The notes under the pieces were generated by a model that ran no database searches, was not told the origin of the DNA, and saw only the letters and a list, made by a program, of their open reading frames with translations. From positions 1-22,746 of IMG/VR virus record IMGVR_UViG_3300042691_029549: DNA of 22,746 nt; one strand, 5' to 3'. Source of the DNA: a virus. The position numbers were made by a program, and so were the translations under genes. Shown piece by piece: positions 2,560 through 20,168 of this stretch. Position 1 is the stretch's first letter. The number at the start of each line of letters is the position of its first letter.

Positions 2560-2828
2560 AATGCACCAAGAAAGAACTCGTTGAGCAGATAAAAAAACAG
2601 GAGTCAACAAATCAGTTGTTGCAGCAGCATATCGGACTATTAGAAGCGGAAAACAAGCGACTTTCGGATGAGGTGTCCGCTTTGCCTGAAAACCGGTTCA
2701 ACCTTGAGACCATAGTTCCTGAGGAATGGAGAAAGCCGGTGTTGCAAATTGTTCGCGCATTGCGAGCCCGAAGCAAGGCAAATAAGGATTTGCTTGAAGC
2801 CATTAAGGGCTGCGTGGAGGAACAATGA
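2556..2828 (+). CDS. small coiled-coil protein of unknown function
   Basis: A 90-aa soluble protein. Residues about 8-45 are heptad-like and charged (QIKKQESTNQLLQQ, LLEAENKRLSDEV), predicting a coiled coil; the C-terminal half is a basic helix (RALRARSKANKDLLEAIK). The ATG at 2556 overlaps the terminase stop (ATGA) and has AAAGG 8 nt upstream; a GTG at 2550 would add two residues. Its stop overlaps the next gene by 4 nt, so it is translationally coupled between terminase and the glycosyltransferase. It could be a packaging accessory or a cofactor of the adjacent enzymes. I recognise no family. Confidence 0.75.
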   Translation: MKCTKKELVEQIKKQESTNQLLQQHIGLLEAENKRLSDEVSALPENRFNLETIVPEEWRKPVLQIVRALRARSKANKDLLEAIKGCVEEQ

Positions 2829-4360
2829 AATACGGTTTAGCCTACGTGACGAAGCGGGCGCATTGCATCCCGCAGGTGGTGAAGATGTGGAACGACCGGG
2901 CGGCGGACAAGTCGCGGGTCAAGTGGTGCATCGGGGCGGACAGGGGCGATGCTGATGTTCGCGCCGAGGCGCATAAACTTTCGATATTAGTGTCAAGCGA
3001 CGGCGGCGAACAGAATTACGTCAAAGCAGCAAACGCGGCTTGCGGCATCCTGTCGGGGTGGGGAGTGGATTACCTCATCGTCGTCAGTGACGACTTCATC
3101 CCGCCGAACCATTGGGACGCCGCACTCGACGCCGTGATTGCGGAGAACGGCGGCACCACCAGTGCCGTGATTCACGTCAGCGACGGCGGCAGCAACGACC
3201 TCTGCACTATCCCCATCGTCGGCATCAACCGCTACTGGCGGTTCGGGTACATGTACCACCCGTCCTATGAGTCCATGTTCTGTGACACGGAACTGACGGC
3301 GCGGGCGGTGTTGGACTGTTCGTTGGTGGATGCGCGGCATTTGCTGTTTGAGCACATGCACCCGGTCAGCAATAAGCGGCCAACGGATGACGTGGACAAT
3401 GTACACGCCAGCAGCGAACGCTACAAAAAAGGAGAACAGATATTTTTGCAGAGGGTGTCTATTGGCTTCCCGCCAGACAAAGACCCGACTGACGTGCCTC
3501 CGGTGCTTGGAAATCGCTACTGCGCTAGTTTACAGGTGACACGCGACGATGTTTGCTTGCTGGGCGTTGTTGAAACGCTATTTCGGTATGGCGTCAGGAA
3601 CTTTCAATTTAATGTTCCTACGCACCATTGGGACGGTTCGACCGTGCCAGAGTCGGACCATCAACAAGTCAAGGACATTGCCGCCAAGTTGGTCGATATG
3701 GGGGCGCAGTATGTCAGGGTCAATATTGACAGTCGTGTGCACATTACAACGATTGACAAAAAGAAAATGTGGATACGATTCGGACACGAGGGTATGGCGC
3801 GAGGTGATGTTGAGACTGCTTACCGAAACAACTGTTTGTCTCGCCTGCGCTCGCTTGGGTTCAACCACCTACTTATTGTGGATGGCGACGAATTATTTAA
3901 GCCGGGCGCTTTGGCGGCAGTAGATTGGAACGTGCGGTGGTTTCATCCCCACACGGCGGCGTTAAGGGGCGTGCCTCTGGCTGGCCTGCCGGCGGTTGCT
4001 GTGGAAGGCGCGGAAGATAGGATTCTCGTGTACATGGGACCGGATGATTGGTGGAAAGACGTGCGAAGTCCTTATCAGCGAACGCGGGATATTGAGATAT
4101 TCGGCGTCCTGCACTTCTCCGCCGTCCGCAAGACCCGCGACGAGATCGCCGCGAAAATGCGGAAAAGCGGCCACTACGACGATGCGGAGTATCATTTCGA
4201 GGACTGGATTACCCGCAAACTGCCGGCGCTCAAGCCCGGTGCGGTCAATGTCCATATGTACCGCGACGGCTCGTTGTGGCCGTTGGCGCGTGAACTCAAA
4301 CCCGAGGAATGGGCGGCGATACCCGAGAGCGTCAAGCCGCTGTTGTGGGGGGCCAAGTAA
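2825..4360 (+). CDS. two-domain glycosyltransferase (GT-A/GT2-like)
   Basis: A 511-aa protein that looks like two GT-A-type glycosyltransferase domains in tandem. Domain 1 (about 1-200) has a hydrophobic strand ending in an acidic motif, VDYLIVVSDDF, with S88-D89-D90 as the DxD-like site. Domain 2 (about 228-511) has HLLIVDGDELF with D353-G354-D355, then LHFSAVRKTRDEIAAKM (429-445), typical of the C-terminal part of GT2 enzymes. The likely reaction is transfer of a sugar from a nucleotide-sugar; the acceptor (virion protein, tail or host glycan) cannot be told. The start overlaps the previous stop by 4 nt. DNA from about 3425 to 3960 is more AT-rich than the flanks and begins with a ribosome-site-like run AAAAAAGGAGAAC, so the gene may be a fusion. 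Confidence 0.8.
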   Translation: MKYGLAYVTKRAHCIPQVVKMWNDRAADKSRVKWCIGADRGDADVRAEAHKLSILVSSDGGEQNYVKAANAACGILSGWGVDYLIVVSDDFIPPNHWDAALDAVIAENGGTTSAVIHVSDGGSNDLCTIPIVGINRYWRFGYMYHPSYESMFCDTELTARAVLDCSLVDARHLLFEHMHPVSNKRPTDDVDNVHASSERYKKGEQIFLQRVSIGFPPDKDPTDVPPVLGNRYCASLQVTRDDVCLLGVVETLFRYGVRNFQFNVPTHHWDGSTVPESDHQQVKDIAAKLVDMGAQYVRVNIDSRVHITTIDKKKMWIRFGHEGMARGDVETAYRNNCLSRLRSLGFNHLLIVDGDELFKPGALAAVDWNVRWFHPHTAALRGVPLAGLPAVAVEGAEDRILVYMGPDDWWKDVRSPYQRTRDIEIFGVLHFSAVRKTRDEIAAKMRKSGHYDDAEYHFEDWITRKLPALKPGAVNVHMYRDGSLWPLARELKPEEWAAIPESVKPLLWGAK

Positions 4361-4935
4361 TGTATTCACAGAACGACGAAGAGAAGATCATCCTCGATTA
4401 CTTCGGGGACACGTTTGGCCGGTTCTACGACATCGGCGCGTGGGACGGCAAGACGTTCAGCAACACCCGCGCCTTGCTCGAAAAGGGCTGGACGGGAATC
4501 ATGGTGGAGCCGTCGCCGGCAGCATTTGTCGGGCTGCTGAAAAACTGCTCGGAGTTCGGGGACAAAGTGAAACTGGTCAACGCGGCGATCACCCCGAAGC
4601 CGTCCCTGATGGAGTTCTACGACGCGGACGGGGACGCGGTTGGCTCGCTCAATCCCGACCACGCGGTCAAGTGGGGCCACGGTCAGGTCAAGTTCACCGT
4701 TCACACCCTGGCCGCGCAGACACTGTTTGCCTCGTTCGGCCCGGCGGAGTTCATCAACCTCGACGTGGAAAGCATCAACGCCATCCTGTTCCAACATCTA
4801 CCGTGGACGTGGTCGGAATTGAAGCTGGTCTGCGTCGAACACGACGGCCACGACAAACAGATGGAAGAACTGGTCAAGCCCGCCGGGTTCAAGCGGATTC
4901 ACCGTACCGGCGAAAACCTGATTTTAGCCCGATGA
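4360..4935 (+). CDS. FkbM-family methyltransferase
   Basis: A 191-aa SAM-dependent methyltransferase of the FkbM type, typically O-methylating sugars or polyketide-like hydroxyls. Motif I is FYDIGAWDGKTFSN (DIGAWDG at 24-30), the acidic residue closing strand 2 is E50 (GIMVEPSP), and the diagnostic NLDVESINAILF block lies at 133-144, followed by LKLVCVEHDG. The ATG at 4360 shares one base with the preceding TAA; upstream in-frame extension would only read the previous gene out of frame. The position between a glycosyltransferase and a pyruvyl transferase suggests that it methylates a glycan built by the same cassette. Confidence 0.9.
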   Translation: MYSQNDEEKIILDYFGDTFGRFYDIGAWDGKTFSNTRALLEKGWTGIMVEPSPAAFVGLLKNCSEFGDKVKLVNAAITPKPSLMEFYDADGDAVGSLNPDHAVKWGHGQVKFTVHTLAAQTLFASFGPAEFINLDVESINAILFQHLPWTWSELKLVCVEHDGHDKQMEELVKPAGFKRIHRTGENLILAR

Positions 4936-5633
4936 AACCCATTGCCGCGCAATGGTGCCAGTCGGATAATCTGGGCGACAAGCTCATGCCGTGGCTGGTG
5001 AGCAAGGTTGCCGGTCAGTGGCCGTGGTACACCGCCACCGGTAAACGGTGGTTGCTGGGCGGCAGCATCCTGAATTGGGCGGACGCGGACTGCTACGTCT
5101 GGGGCGCGGGCTTGGCCGACCGGAAACACAAGGTCAACCCGGCGGCAAAGTTGCTGGCGGTGAGGGGGCCGGAGTCGGCACGGTTAGCGGTGGCTTCCGG
5201 GTGCCAGCCGCCACTCGCCATTGGCGACCCGGCCTTGCTCACGCCGCTCTATACGGGCGCACCCCGTGAGATTCGGTACGAGTTGGGGGTCTTTCCCCAC
5301 TACGCCGACTGGCACGGCCCGGTGGCCTTATACGGCGACGTGGAGGGCGTCTATCTCGGCAACGTGCTGGCCGACAGGCTCGACACCATCCGGGCTATCC
5401 ACCAATGCGCCGAAGTCGTTACGTCCAGCCTGCACGTCCTGATTCTGTGCGATGCGTACCAGATCCCGAATAGCTACCACCATTGGGGCGGGGACATCCA
5501 CGGCGACGGGTTGAAGTATCAGGACTACTTTGCCAGCGTTGGGCGCACGGCGGACACGATGGCAACGGCGGCAGCGGTACAGGAACGGCAACGGGCACTC
5601 CGCAACCTGCTGGTGAATTGGGGTGGATTATGA
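4932..5633 (+). CDS. polysaccharide pyruvyl transferase family protein
   Basis: A 233-aa protein of the polysaccharide pyruvyl transferase family, which adds ketal-linked pyruvate from phosphoenolpyruvate to sugars. Landmarks in order: SDNLGDKLMP (11-20), LLGGSILN (41-48), the LAVRGPESARLA block (75-86), IGDPALL (97-103) and the C-terminal VTSSLHVLILCDAY (163-176). These match the family's NxGD, GGG-like, VRxxxS and SSxLHxxxxA pattern. It is shorter than many family members (about 300-380 aa), so the N-terminal lobe may be minimal. The start ATGA overlaps the methyltransferase stop by 4 nt, giving tight coupling within the glycan cassette. Confidence 0.88.
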   Translation: MKPIAAQWCQSDNLGDKLMPWLVSKVAGQWPWYTATGKRWLLGGSILNWADADCYVWGAGLADRKHKVNPAAKLLAVRGPESARLAVASGCQPPLAIGDPALLTPLYTGAPREIRYELGVFPHYADWHGPVALYGDVEGVYLGNVLADRLDTIRAIHQCAEVVTSSLHVLILCDAYQIPNSYHHWGGDIHGDGLKYQDYFASVGRTADTMATAAAVQERQRALRNLLVNWGGL

Positions 5634-6349
5634 AGCGCATCATCGTCAACGTCGGGGTGGGGCAGTGGTATCCACGGGGGCAGGCGCGGTTGCGGGACAG
5701 CCTACAGGCGCACGGTGCCGGCGCGGAGTTGCACTTCTACGGCGACTGGCCGCCCGGTGCGCCGGCTCATTCGGTGCTGCCGTTCGCGTTCAAGGCCCAT
5801 GCGATGATGCTCGCCCAGCGGGCCGGTGCCGAGAGCATCCTGTGGCTGGACTGTTCCTGCTGGGCTGTACGGTCGCTAGAGCCGTTGTGGGATAAGATCG
5901 AGCGGGACGGCTTCTGCTTTATGAACAACGGCTGGCATCTGGGGCAGTGGGCATCCGATTACTGCCTTGACCTGTTCGGCCTGACCCGCGACGAGGCCAT
6001 GACCAAGCTCGACCTTACCGCCATGTTGATGGGCTTGTCCATGCGCGACCCGCGAGCCGTGGCGTGGATGGACGAGTTCTACCTGCATTGCCACAACCCC
6101 CGGCTGATGAACGGGAGCCTGCACAACCGACCGGGGCAGGAAATCGTTGACCCGCACAGTGGCGTCAATTACGGCATCATCTCCGCCGACCCGCGCTGCC
6201 GGGGGCATAGCCGGGAACAGGTAGTCGCTGGGTTACTGGCGCACAAGCACGGGTTGCTGCCGTACACCAACCCGCCTGAAATCCTCCAATGCCTGCACCC
6301 GGACTGGAAACCCGATGACCGGGCCGTGATACAGGCGTGCGGGATGTGA
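5630..6349 (+). CDS. putative glycosyltransferase-like protein
   Basis: A 239-aa protein starting at the ATGA overlap with the pyruvyl transferase. The N-terminus is a Rossmann-like strand (MKRIIVNVGVGQWYPRG). Residues 51-80 read PFAFKAHAMMLAQRAGAESI then LWLDCSCWAV; a lysine-containing helix before a strand ending in an acidic residue resembles the DxD-strand architecture of GT-A sugar transferases that act on glycan chains. The C-terminal half has several His/Cys/Trp residues but no motif I can name. Position at the end of the four-enzyme cassette supports a sugar-transfer role; I regard the exact family as unresolved. No terminator separates it from the convergent gene starting 2 nt further on. 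Confidence 0.6.
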   Translation: MKRIIVNVGVGQWYPRGQARLRDSLQAHGAGAELHFYGDWPPGAPAHSVLPFAFKAHAMMLAQRAGAESILWLDCSCWAVRSLEPLWDKIERDGFCFMNNGWHLGQWASDYCLDLFGLTRDEAMTKLDLTAMLMGLSMRDPRAVAWMDEFYLHCHNPRLMNGSLHNRPGQEIVDPHSGVNYGIISADPRCRGHSREQVVAGLLAHKHGLLPYTNPPEILQCLHPDWKPDDRAVIQACGM

Positions 6350-6351
6350 GC

Positions 6352-6582
6352 CTAGTAGAAAATCTGATAGTCGCCGCTGTAGTATGTCTCGCTGCCGTTG
6401 GGCCAACGGAACCGCACCCAGCCGGGGCCGTTCTCCACAATCGTGACGTTCGGTGTCTGCACCCAAAGACGGGAGCCATTCTGGGTGTCGTGGTAGTTGA
6501 TGGACGCGGCTTTGCGGTTCGCGTCACCGGCACCCAGACACACCACACCCGCCAACACCACCGCGAGGATTGTCCATTTCAT
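6352..6582 (-). CDS. small secreted protein of unknown function
   Basis: A 76-aa protein on the minus strand. Residues 1-20 are a Sec signal peptide (MKWTILAVVLAGVVCLGAG) with likely cleavage around LGA-GDA; the Cys at 15 lacks a clean lipobox. The mature part is about 56 residues, aromatic and Asn-rich (WVQTPNVTIVENGPGWVRFRW, abbreviated), suggesting a small beta domain in the periplasm or outside the cell. The ATG at 6582 has GGAGG 6 nt upstream; longer in-frame extensions run back through the terminator and array and are rejected. It has its own candidate promoter and no match I recognise. It may be a lysogeny-expressed accessory gene acting on the host surface. Confidence 0.75.
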   Translation of the reverse strand: MKWTILAVVLAGVVCLGAGDANRKAASINYHDTQNGSRLWVQTPNVTIVENGPGWVRFRWPNGSETYYSGDYQIFY

Positions 6583-6599
6583 ATCATACCTCCACCGGC

Positions 6600-6627
6600 A
6601 CCGTACCCCTGTCCCGGCCAGTGTCAA
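6600..6627 (-). promoter_or_regulatory. candidate promoter of the small secreted gene
   Basis: On the minus strand TTGACA (6627-6622), a perfect -35 match, is followed after 16 nt by TACGGT (6605-6600), a 3/6 match to -10. It begins right after the U-run of the upstream terminator, exactly where a new transcript would be needed. The predicted leader is only about 11 nt, which makes the exact start uncertain. Confidence 0.4.
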
Positions 6628-6663
6628 GCAAAAGGCGGCAGGCTCGTGCTGACACCTGCCGCC
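6628..6663 (-). terminator. intrinsic terminator after the pentamer array
   Basis: On the minus strand GGCGGCAGG (6663-6655), a 12-nt loop and CCTGCCGCC (6642-6634) form a perfect 9-bp GC-rich stem followed by TTTTGC. It lies immediately after the last array unit, closing the transcription unit that starts at about 7816. Confidence 0.8.
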
Positions 6664-6666
6664 CCA

Positions 6667-7106
6667 CTTTGCCAGTAGTCGCCTCGCGCGACGGTGCGAC
6701 GCCGATGCTGCGCCGAACCTTGCCGTTGCTGGACTGAGCCGAACTTTGCTCCACCATGCCTTTGCCACTCTTGGCGTGACCTTACGCCTCGTCTCAACGC
6801 CCTTCCGTAGCGTTACCGAGCTCGACCGTGCGGTGCCTTTGCTCTGCCAAACGTCGCGCCGCGTAGCCTTTGCCTGACAATTCCACGCCTTGCCTTTGCC
6901 GTTCCGTTCCGTGCTCTACCCGGCCTTGCCTTTGCTTCACGCTTCTGCTCTCCGCAGCGCCTTTGCTCATCAGGGCAAATCGTCGCCTTGCCTTTGCTGT
7001 GCGGCGCGTCGCGTCGCGGCACTTGACCCTGCCTTTGCCATGCCTTTGCCGCGCTGCTCCAGGCTTCGCCCTTGCTTTGCTTCTCTGTGCCTTACTCTGC
7101 CTTCGC
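6667..7106 (-). repeat. pentamer-phased G array (85 units of 5-6 nt)
   Basis: Read on the minus strand from 7106 to 6667, the 440 nt divide without remainder into 85 units: 70 of 5 nt and 15 of 6 nt. By my hand parse 84 units begin with G (51 with GC, 16 GT, 12 GA, 5 GG); the exception is TACTG at 6677-6673. Ten of the 6-nt units are GCAAAG, and GCAAAG (with two in-phase extra copies) recurs mostly at 31-nt or other 5n+1 spacings. Mean unit length is 5.18 nt, so two units span 10.35 nt, near one helical turn. Period 5 excludes normal coding. It starts 2 nt after the stop of the RAMP-like gene and ends at an intrinsic terminator, so it should be the 3' part of that mRNA or a processed RNA from it. 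Confidence 0.85.
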
Positions 7107-7108
7107 TG

Positions 7109-7705
7109 TTACTTCACTTCTTCCCAACTGAACCGGCCCTTGCCGCTGTTCCGCCACTGGCCCAAGCCCTTGTTCGCGCCGTAGTCCAGACACTGCTTGA
7201 CCAACTCCTCCAGCGCCGGCGACAGGCACTTGATTTCCGCCTCGATGGTCGCGCCAGACTTCACCGTCTCGCTGCTGGCAAGGCTGACCCGCTCGCCCTT
7301 CATGGTGTCGGCACGGAGCGGACGGGTGCAAATCTCGCCCATCTCGCCGTTGATCGCCAGCTTGCGCGGGCTGACAAACACGAAGTTATCCACCATGCGC
7401 TTGAACGTCCACTTGGTGAGCTTGGTCTTGCCGACCTTGATTTCGTCGCCGCTCAGGTCAATCAGGATGCCCACGGCTTCCTTGATGAACCCCTTGAGTT
7501 GGTAGTCCCACACGAATGGCTTGCCATTCTCCTTCGGGAACACCGTCAACGACTTTTCGACCAACTCCTCCGCGCCCAGCGCGTGGATTTCCTCATCCAT
7601 CTTCTCCGCGTCCTTGCTCTTGGACGCGATGAACTCGCGGTGGATTTCGGGGTTGTTGCTGGCCGTACCGAGCATGTCTTCCGTCAGTGTAATGCGAACC
7701 TTCAT
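7109..7705 (-). CDS. RAMP-superfamily-like protein upstream of the array
   Basis: A 198-aa protein on the minus strand, opposite to its neighbours. The ATG at 7705 is preceded by GGAGGAACC; a longer in-frame reading would translate the structured leader and is rejected. It opens with a beta strand (MKVRITLTEDMLGTAS), has a central block FVWDYQLKGFIKEAVGIL (about 64-81) like the SLKGxxR region of RAMP proteins, then RPLRADTMKGERVSLASSE, then SGATIEAEIKCLS, and finishes with a Gly-rich loop GLGQWRNSGKGRFSW. Strand, LKG block, E-V-x-x-G-x-x-hydrophobic strand and Gly-rich C-terminus are the layout of Cas7/Cas6-type RAMPs, which bind RNA. No other CRISPR gene is near. Family placement is inference from pattern; conserved phage protein of unknown function is the fallback. 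Confidence 0.7.
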   Translation of the reverse strand: MKVRITLTEDMLGTASNNPEIHREFIASKSKDAEKMDEEIHALGAEELVEKSLTVFPKENGKPFVWDYQLKGFIKEAVGILIDLSGDEIKVGKTKLTKWTFKRMVDNFVFVSPRKLAINGEMGEICTRPLRADTMKGERVSLASSETVKSGATIEAEIKCLSPALEELVKQCLDYGANKGLGQWRNSGKGRFSWEEVK

Positions 7706-7719
7706 GGTTCCTCCATAAG

Positions 7720-7816
7720 AAAACCCGCCCCAGCCTGTGAACGTAGTTCCACTAGCGTGGAAGTGTTGCCGGATAACCGGCGGCCAAGGCGGGCTGATAT
7801 TGGTGCTACGTTCACA
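7720..7816 (-). promoter_or_regulatory. structured 5' leader RNA of the RAMP-like gene
   Basis: From the predicted transcript start near 7816 the minus-strand leader folds as a junction. P1 is an 11-bp perfect stem (TGTGAACGTAG at 7816-7806 with CTACGTTCACA at 7746-7736). P2 is GCCGG-TTAT-CCGGC (7781-7768). P3 is TTCCAC-GCTA-GTGGAA (7762-7747) and abuts P1. CCCGCC (7793-7788) can alternatively pair with GGCGGG (7729-7724), which is followed by TTTT, a terminator-like alternative just before the ribosome site. This looks like a cis-regulatory RNA; no known riboswitch class is recognised. The same palindrome could also be a DNA operator. Confidence 0.5.
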
Positions 7817-7822
7817 ATCCAC

Positions 7823-7851
7823 CTTCTACCAGACCTCCGCCGGTCTGTCAA
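7823..7851 (-). promoter_or_regulatory. sigma70-type promoter for the RAMP-like gene and array
   Basis: On the minus strand TTGACA (7851-7846) is separated by exactly 17 nt from TAGAAG (7828-7823): a 6/6 -35 and a 4/6 -10. Transcription would begin near 7816, the first base of leader stem P1. A host-type promoter in a late structural region suggests expression by host polymerase, possibly in the prophage state. The spacer contains an inverted repeat, CAGACC/GGTCTG at 7830-7847, which could be an operator. Confidence 0.6.
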
Positions 7852-7863
7852 CAGGTAAGTAAC

Positions 7864-19458: not shown

Positions 19459-20168
19459 GTCTGCCGGTCATCCAACTCAAATGCGGCACCAGCGGCGACG
19501 CCGTCCCCACAATGCTGCTCAAGTGCGGCACACAGGCCAACGCCGTCCCCACGCTGCTGCGGGCGTGTCCGGGCGGTGAGATTGTGCCGCCCGTCAGTTG
19601 CCTTCCATGCAGCGGGACTGCCCCCTCGTGGATATATGTCACGTTGACGGTGCCCGGTGGCTACCAAGAGCTCTGTCTGCCGGACATCAACGGACGCTGT
19701 ACTGACCGGGCTTGTGTTCACATTTGGTCGACCGGCGAACGGGTCAAAATCCCTATTACTCCGCCTTTCCCCAGCCTCCCGTGTTTCTATCGAGCTTTAA
19801 CCTCTGCCGGAATAACGTATTCGTACAAGCGAACTTACCGGACGGAAGCAAACTGCGACGCCTATGAAGACATTATGGGTGGCTGGTACGACCCCTGCGA
19901 CCATACGGGTTCCACATTGTTTCCTCTGTGGGAAGTGTTCTTGGGCTGGTCTGCTGGTGATACATGGAGTCTCGGACTAGCCAACGATTACCCCCAAGGT
20001 GGATATGGCTACGGCAGGGGCGGCGGCTCGGTTGTTATCCCGCAGTGTACCCCAGGAATCTATACGTTCGTCGCCGATTTTGTGGTAGCATTTCAAGGCG
20101 GCCTTGACTTGTGTGACGCAGGCCCGATTCCGATTACCGCCACCGTTGAATTCCCGGAGGTAGGATGA
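19455..20168 (+). CDS. Cys-rich tail-module protein with short tandem repeats
   Basis: A 237-aa protein. The GTG at 19455 (GTGA overlap) is chosen; the frame is open further upstream but only as an out-of-frame reading of the previous genes. The N-terminus carries two and a half copies of a 14-15 aa repeat: IQLKCGTSGDAVPTM, LLKCGTQANAVPTL, LRACPGGEIVP. A CLPCSG pair follows, and further Cys are spread along the protein. The C-terminal half is aromatic and Gly-rich (DYPQGGYGYGRGGGSVVI, YTFVADFVVAFQGGLDLC), probably a beta domain. Perhaps a disulfide-stabilised or zinc-binding fibre/adhesin component. DNA after about 19740 is AT-richer. No family recognised. Confidence 0.7.
   Translation: MSLPVIQLKCGTSGDAVPTMLLKCGTQANAVPTLLRACPGGEIVPPVSCLPCSGTAPSWIYVTLTVPGGYQELCLPDINGRCTDRACVHIWSTGERVKIPITPPFPSLPCFYRALTSAGITYSYKRTYRTEANCDAYEDIMGGWYDPCDHTGSTLFPLWEVFLGWSAGDTWSLGLANDYPQGGYGYGRGGGSVVIPQCTPGIYTFVADFVVAFQGGLDLCDAGPIPITATVEFPEVG

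What the first reader, a model, noticed from the sequence alone, without database searches (positions are those of the whole stretch)
6628..7851. Promoter, structured leader, RAMP-like gene, array and terminator form one self-contained unit
TTGACA-N17-TAGAAG at 7851-7823 predicts transcription from about 7816; a 9-bp GC stem plus TTTT at 6663-6630 ends it. Everything between is leader, gene and array. The array would be the 3' untranslated part, or be cut out of it. The unit is antisense to the surrounding late genes and has a host-type promoter, as expected for an accessory gene expressed independently of the lytic programme.
Basis: partly seen in the sequence, partly recalled or inferred. 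Interest (0 to 1): 0.75.

Follow-up and report, generated by a model that had tools for sequence, protein, structure and literature searches.

The report
VIPR-like RNA-guided unit in phage
This phage carries a small stand-alone gene for a CRISPR-like RNA-binding protein, followed by a strictly patterned "GNNNN" RNA array; together they closely resemble VIPR, a recently reported system in which phages make RNA guides to silence rival phages, but the array pattern here is different from the one that was tested.

Summary
The unit is real. On the minus strand a leader, a 198-aa gene, an array and a hairpin terminator lie between phage late genes. The protein has the CRISPR RAMP fold (AlphaFold pLDDT 92; type VII Cas7 and Csm3, Z about 13).

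The array is not repeat-spacer. It is a lattice of 5-nt units, G-H-A-N-N, with a 6-nt unit GCAANG about every 31 nt. The G-spectral power is 44; shuffles reach 12 at most. In 125 non-redundant relatives, 113 have such an array, nearly all beside the gene and all on its strand. The period is 5.158 +/- 0.020 nt. Near-identical phages differ by swapped patches that keep the G lattice.

This matches VIPR (bioRxiv 2026, PMC13142463): a phage RAMP plus GGY/NN pentanucleotide guide RNAs that bind DNA through the NN letters. The best reading is a VIPR-like guide cassette, acquired as a moron. It differs from VIPR type II: GHA/NN instead of GGY/NN, 15.7% six-nt units against 0.8%, long continuous arrays, no conserved accessory gene, and a RAMP closer in sequence to type VII Cas7. 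I found no target, so guiding is inferred. The promoter is only plausible, and terminators at array ends are not general.

The parts
7823..7851 (-). Candidate sigma-70-type promoter TTGACA-N17-TAGAAG; the spacer holds an AGACC-N6-GGTCT inverted repeat
   Evidence: Sequence; one such site in the window against 0.39 expected. Weak -10 (4/6).
7706..7816 (-). Structured leader. Arms TGTGAACGTAG 7816-7806 / CTACGTTCACA 7746-7736 cross AGCCCGCCTTGGCC 7795-7782 / GGCTGGGGCGGG 7735-7724 (H-type pseudoknot topology, or two alternative stems), then TTTTCTT and GGAGG
   Evidence: Fold z -3.3. L010 keeps the element with compensatory changes in the second stem; L001/L002 has the same crossing topology with unrelated letters (L002 leader z -4.3).
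7109..7705 (-). Vipr/Cas7-like RAMP protein gene, 198 aa, C-terminal glycine-rich loop GLGQWRNSGKGRF
6663..7106 (-). Array: about 85 units, 5-nt GNNNN with 6-nt GCAAAG-type units about every 31 nt; candidate guide RNA (vrRNA) array
   Evidence: Spectral power 44 against shuffle maximum 11.6; parse; period 5.15
6630..6663 (-). Intrinsic-terminator-like hairpin GGCGGCAGG-N12-CCTGCCGCC-TTTT
   Evidence: Sequence

Best explanation
A phage-borne VIPR-like guide cassette. Shown here: a small RAMP-fold protein is encoded next to a same-strand array whose letters form a strict lattice, one fixed G every 5 nt (occasionally 6), with variable letters between. The same gene-array pair recurs in hundreds of phages, and the variable letters turn over in local patches while the G lattice stays. 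Inferred from the VIPR preprint: copies of the protein polymerise on the array transcript, one copy per 5-nt unit. The fixed GHA letters (GGY in type II) are held and excluded from pairing by the protein, and the two free letters of each unit (positions 4-5, or 3-4) pair with DNA of a competing phage or prophage, repressing it. In the window the cassette has its own leader and terminator, so it could be expressed outside the late programme. The leader may dock the complex or control its own expression. The 6-nt GCAANG units, the most conserved part of the array, probably mark register or boundaries of overlapping guides.
For: RAMP fold: AF2 pLDDT 91.8; Foldseek to type VII Cas7 E 3.7e-8; Z 13.8, 157 aligned, 4.8 A, and Csm3 Z 13.0, 2.5 A. 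Profile hit to type VII Cas7 E 9.4e-5. Gene-array linkage: 113 of 125 loci, all on the gene's strand. Lattice: 11,998 units, 84.2% 5-nt, 15.7% 6-nt. Position-specific turnover: G 3%, free positions 14-15%, 6-mers 0-5% with one position at 10%. Patch swaps. VIPR text: phage RAMP plus tandem pentanucleotide guides, 'or a related consensus', 'staggered arrays with overlapping vrRNAs'. SUSP1 Vipr is the best ORF for our profile in 50 kb of SUSP1; hhalign E 8.6e-5, colinear over 170 columns. Vibrio/Listonella relatives of SUSP1 Vipr use GCANN arrays like ours.
Against: No target DNA was found for any array, so guiding is untested. Homology to type II Viprs is weak (at most 10.5 bits) and weaker than to type VII Cas7 (25 bits). 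The motif is not GGY/NN, and the 6-nt units are not described in the preprint's main text. No vap-like accessory gene. No conserved 3' tail after the array was found.
Confidence: 0.8

Rival explanations
1. The array is only a binding scaffold. The RAMP protein coats its own transcript in 5/6-nt register (as TRAP does on NAG repeats) for autoregulation, RNA stabilisation or as a decoy, with no guide function.
For: Array and gene are always on one strand, in or near one transcript. The leader is strongly structured. No target was found.
Against: Arrays of 465 nt median (up to 1,550) are long for autoregulation. The free letters turn over in patches between near-identical phages, as expected of guides. 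Related VIPR arrays are experimentally guides (PMC13142463).
Confidence: 0.12
2. A degenerate CRISPR array with a stray Cas7: GCAAAGGC as repeat, about 23 nt as spacer.
For: Cas7-type fold; GCAANGG recurs about every 26-36 nt; profile closest to type VII Cas7.
Against: The G lattice runs through the would-be spacers in every array. No cas1/cas2 or other recurrent cas-like gene stood out among neighbours. Repeats are 6-8 nt and of variable spacing.
Confidence: 0.05
3. The periodicity is a by-product of sequence composition or coding, with no function.
For: G+C-rich window; spurious ORFs run through the arrays.
Against: Power 44 against at most 11.6 in shuffles. Same period in 83 arrays, sd 0.02 nt. 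Coding flanks show period 3 only.
Confidence: 0.01

Closest known systems
VIPR (Viral Interference Programmable Repeat), type II, Escherichia phage SUSP1 (PMC13142463; protein ALH47069.1, PDB 36pp)
   Same: Phage-encoded ~200-aa RAMP with C-terminal G-loop (GVGDWRPRFGRF against GLGQWRNSGKGRF); flanking same-strand array of tandem 5-nt units with fixed and free positions; often a moron, in some phages antisense among late genes.
   Different: GHA/NN instead of GGY/NN; 15.7% 6-nt units (GCAANG) against 0.8%; period 5.16 against 5.02; continuous 300-1,550-nt arrays instead of ~100-nt guides each with a 3' pseudoknot tail; no conserved vap; weak sequence homology.
CRISPR type VII Cas7 and type III Csm3 (8yhd, 6ae2)
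   Same: RAMP fold, G-loop; closest solved relatives by sequence and fold.
   Different: No CRISPR array and no recurrent cas-like neighbours; the array has a 5/6-nt sequence lattice instead of repeat-spacer; phage-borne single gene.
TIGR-Tas (PMC12045711)
   Same: Phage-encoded protein plus tandem guide array.
   Different: [quoted passage not shown] the array grammar was not compared in detail here.
TRAP and NAG-repeat RNA (own knowledge)
   Same: Short motif every 5-6 nt bound by identical protein subunits.
   Different: Unrelated fold; short leader targets; no hypervariable letters.

Membership tests
VIPR | RAMP fold with RRM core and G-loop | tested here: met
   AF2 pLDDT 91.8; PDB RAMPs Z 12-14; GLGQWRNSGKGRF invariant core
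VIPR | vipr gene flanked by an array of tandem 5-nt units with fixed and hypervariable positions | tested here: met
   113 of 125 loci; 84% 5-nt units; variability by position
VIPR | GGY/NN motif proper (type II) | tested here: not met
   Position 2 is G in only 7%, position 3 is A in 46%; type II control gives GGY. The preprint allows 'a related consensus'; its figure S17 was not available
VIPR | Mostly in phages and prophages, minimal locus | tested here: met
   260 relatives in IMG/VR; 59 loci in 84,980 bacterial and archaeal genomes
VIPR | Vipr clade in RAMP phylogeny | tested here: inconclusive
   hhalign E 8.6e-5 to 1.3e-3 colinear, but Cas7 scores higher; no tree built
VIPR | vap accessory gene | tested here: not met
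   No recurrent neighbour next to the gene; described as typical, not universal
VIPR | ~100-nt vrRNAs with 3' structured tail, bound to Vipr | not testable with these tools
   Needs small-RNA sequencing; no repeated tail seen in the window array
VIPR | DNA targets matched by NN with 1-nt skip | tested here: inconclusive
   No convincing match in 2.0 Mb of fetched DNA; one IMG/VR scan gave only chance hits
CRISPR-Cas | Repeat-spacer array and cas genes | tested here: not met
   Lattice instead of repeat-spacer; no recurrent cas-like neighbours

The most novel reading that the evidence does not exclude
A distinct branch of VIPR-like systems whose guide code is not purely pentanucleotide. Two unit types alternate (GHANN, and a conserved 6-nt GCAANG about every 31 nt) in continuous arrays read as overlapping guides, and its RAMP lies between Vipr and CRISPR Cas7 (type VII/III-D), making it a possible bridge to the origin of CRISPR effector backbones.
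Probability: 0.25. Interest if true: 0.85.

Novelty: new variant of a known kind. Interest (0 to 1): 0.6.

Why it matters
VIPR was reported in April 2026 as an RNA-guided DNA-recognition system proposed to predate CRISPR. Most of what is shown experimentally in that paper's main text comes from one type. This clade (at least 260 phage contigs in IMG/VR, plus MAGs labelled Clostridia, Coriobacteriales, Synergistaceae, Saccharibacteria, Verrucomicrobiota and an Asgard archaeon) gives a measurable second grammar: where the 6-nt units fall, which letters are free and how guides turn over. These can be tested directly and would show how a RAMP filament sets its guide register.

Tried and rejected
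CRISPR-like repeat-spacer reading: rejected, the G lattice fills the spacers.

DNA-helix reading (5.16 nt = half a turn): no 10.33-nt component. A fixed non-integer ruler is not needed, because successive gaps between 6-mers are uncorrelated (r = 0.01), so regular placing of 6-mers explains the coherence.

31-nt minisatellite: no 31-nt component.

Array RNA secondary structure: z +0.55, none.

Rfam elements including hammerhead: none at gathering threshold, two junk matches at relaxed threshold.

Target search with six choices of letter positions and skips 0-3: only chance-level or low-complexity matches; guides shared between arrays: none; one IMG/VR scan with an 8-unit guide: 6 hits, none extends.

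Empty-site comparison: a portal query found no relatives, so the exact insertion 6352-7860 could not be tested.

Accessory gene: none. General terminator after arrays: not supported. The leader's exact core occurs elsewhere in IMG/VR only in L010's contig.

Full report
WHAT IS THERE. The window is a 22.7-kb viral record. Left of the unit are terL and genes with glycosyltransferase and methyltransferase matches; right of it are a head-tail adaptor, portal and capsid, all on the + strand. Between them, on the minus strand, lie a promoter-like site (7851-7823), a structured leader, a 198-aa gene (7705-7109), an array (about 7106-6663) and a terminator-like hairpin (6663-6630). The promoter is plausible but not significant on its own: one in the window, 0.39 expected. 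The leader is more stable than all 200 shuffles (z -3.3).

THE PROTEIN. It has no Pfam family and no significant PHROG, and PADLOC gives Cas7_IIId at E 5.6e-4. Searches with alignments found 260 relatives in IMG/VR and 59 loci in bacterial and archaeal genomes. Invariant residues cluster in the glycine-rich loop GLGQWRNSGKGRF. AlphaFold2 on a 122-row alignment gave pLDDT 91.8 and pTM 0.83. The fold is that of CRISPR RAMPs: type VII Cas7 (Foldseek E 3.7e-8; Z 13.8, 157 aligned, 4.8 A) and Csm3 (Z 13.0, 2.5 A). The best viral model is annotated 'Cas system-associated RAMP superfamily protein'. So 'RAMP-like' is right.

THE ARRAY. Read on the gene strand, the array breaks into 5-nt units starting with G, with an occasional 6-nt unit, typically GCAAAG. 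G spectral power at about 5.15 nt is 44; 500 shuffles reach at most 11.6, and nothing else in the window behaves like this. A scan of 125 non-redundant loci (1.1 Mb) found such arrays in 113, nearly all beside the gene (3' side most often, 5' side in about a third, both in some) and always on the gene's strand. Across 83 long arrays the period is 5.158 nt with sd 0.020. There is no 10.33- or 31-nt component, so all units look equivalent, and coding flanks show only period 3. In 11,998 units, 84.2% are 5 nt and 15.7% are 6 nt. The 5-nt unit is G(91%)-H-A-N-N; the 6-nt unit is its own motif GCAANG, placed every 26-36 nt, more regularly than chance (length variance over 30 units 0.55 against 2.45 when shuffled). 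Successive gaps are uncorrelated, so this is regular placing and not a hidden ruler. Between near-identical phages, arrays differ by local patches in which letters change and the G lattice stays (L012/L013, L001/L002). In aligned homologous arrays G changes least (3%), positions 3-5 most (14-15%), and the 6-mers hardly at all (0-5% at five of six positions).

WHAT IT IS MOST LIKELY. A literature search found the 2026 preprint on VIPR (PMC13142463). VIPR is a phage-encoded ancestral RAMP plus guide RNAs made of tandem GGY/NN pentanucleotides, whose NN letters specify DNA with a 1-nt skip, used against competing phages. I located the SUSP1 Vipr in its genome. It is the best-scoring ORF for our profile in 50 kb of SUSP1 (E 0.06, G-loop aligned), and hhalign aligns the two over 170 columns (E 8.6e-5; E 8e-4 to 1.3e-3 with broader alignments). 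PDB already holds it as 36pp. Relatives of SUSP1 Vipr carry GGYNN arrays, and the Vibrio and Listonella ones use GCANN, like ours. Those two also score best among them against our profile. The preprint says its seven types use GGY/NN 'or a related consensus' and mentions 'staggered arrays with overlapping vrRNAs'. I therefore read the unit as a VIPR-like guide cassette (0.8). Shown: fold, linkage, lattice, turnover. Inferred: filament formation, guiding, repression of rivals.

WHERE IT DIFFERS. Measured side by side, arrays of the SUSP1-like clade have 99.2% 5-nt units, a GGY consensus and period 5.02; ours have 15.7% 6-nt units, GHA/NN and 5.16. Our arrays are continuous, with no repeated tail seen, and no accessory gene recurs beside them. 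By sequence our protein is closer to type VII Cas7 (25 bits) than to type II Viprs (at most 10.5 bits). Membership by phylogeny is therefore inconclusive, and I file it as a variant. Whether the authors already class this clade as one of their types could not be checked, because the supplement was not available.

LEADER AND MOBILITY. The leader's two stems cross (TGTGAACGTAG/CTACGTTCACA and AGCCCGCC.../...GGGGCGGG), a pseudoknot topology. L010 keeps the element with compensatory changes in the second stem and is followed directly by an array. L001/L002 has the same topology with unrelated letters. This rests on three lineages only. The unit moves between phages: vipr is 74% identical to L014 while terL is 26%, and in L014 and L017 it also lies between terL and portal. 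Antisense placement among late genes also occurs in Listonella phage phiHSIC and mycobacteriophage LittleE. Terminators at array ends are not general (7 of 77 against 3 of 77 controls).

WHAT FAILED. I tried to read targets from the arrays with several letter choices and skips against 1.2-2.0 Mb of fetched DNA, including prophage regions of host MAGs, and with one IMG/VR scan. Nothing rose above chance. The code of this clade is therefore open, and no function has been demonstrated here.

Noticed in passing
window 6582-6352 (-): Small ORF (76 aa, MKWTILAVVLAGVVCLGAG...) with a signal-peptide-like start just after the terminator, same strand; no Pfam or PHROG match. Possibly a second accessory gene.
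   Followed up: partly
window 2825-6349 (+): Genes between terL and the unit: glycosyltransferase-like (phrog_14945), FkbM-type methyltransferase (phrog_8156, PF05050) and one without a match; unusual for a head-gene region.
   Followed up: partly
L066 and L029 arrays: Some arrays hold partial internal duplications of several units, suggesting growth by local duplication as well as patch swapping.
   Followed up: no
L082: 744-1302, 3131-4681, 5611-6696: Three separate arrays around one gene; a 1.55-kb array is the longest seen.
   Followed up: no
L025 (gene 4992-5612, array 5642-6169): This array uses GTNNN units instead of GCNNN, so position 2 varies by lineage.
   Followed up: no
L090, L134, L140: Relatives in MAGs labelled Saccharibacteria, Lokiarchaeota and Verrucomicrobiota; only L090 shows a clear array. 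Binning errors not excluded.
   Followed up: no
window 19476-19560 (+): Two imperfect copies of a 42-nt tandem repeat inside an ORF.
   Followed up: no
L155 (phiHSIC) and L154 (Vibrio phage 1.266.O): Several GCANN guide-like arrays next to a Vipr relative, each with a shared leader (TAAAACTCAA) and a following hairpin; a good cultured model for the GCA/NN consensus.
   Followed up: partly
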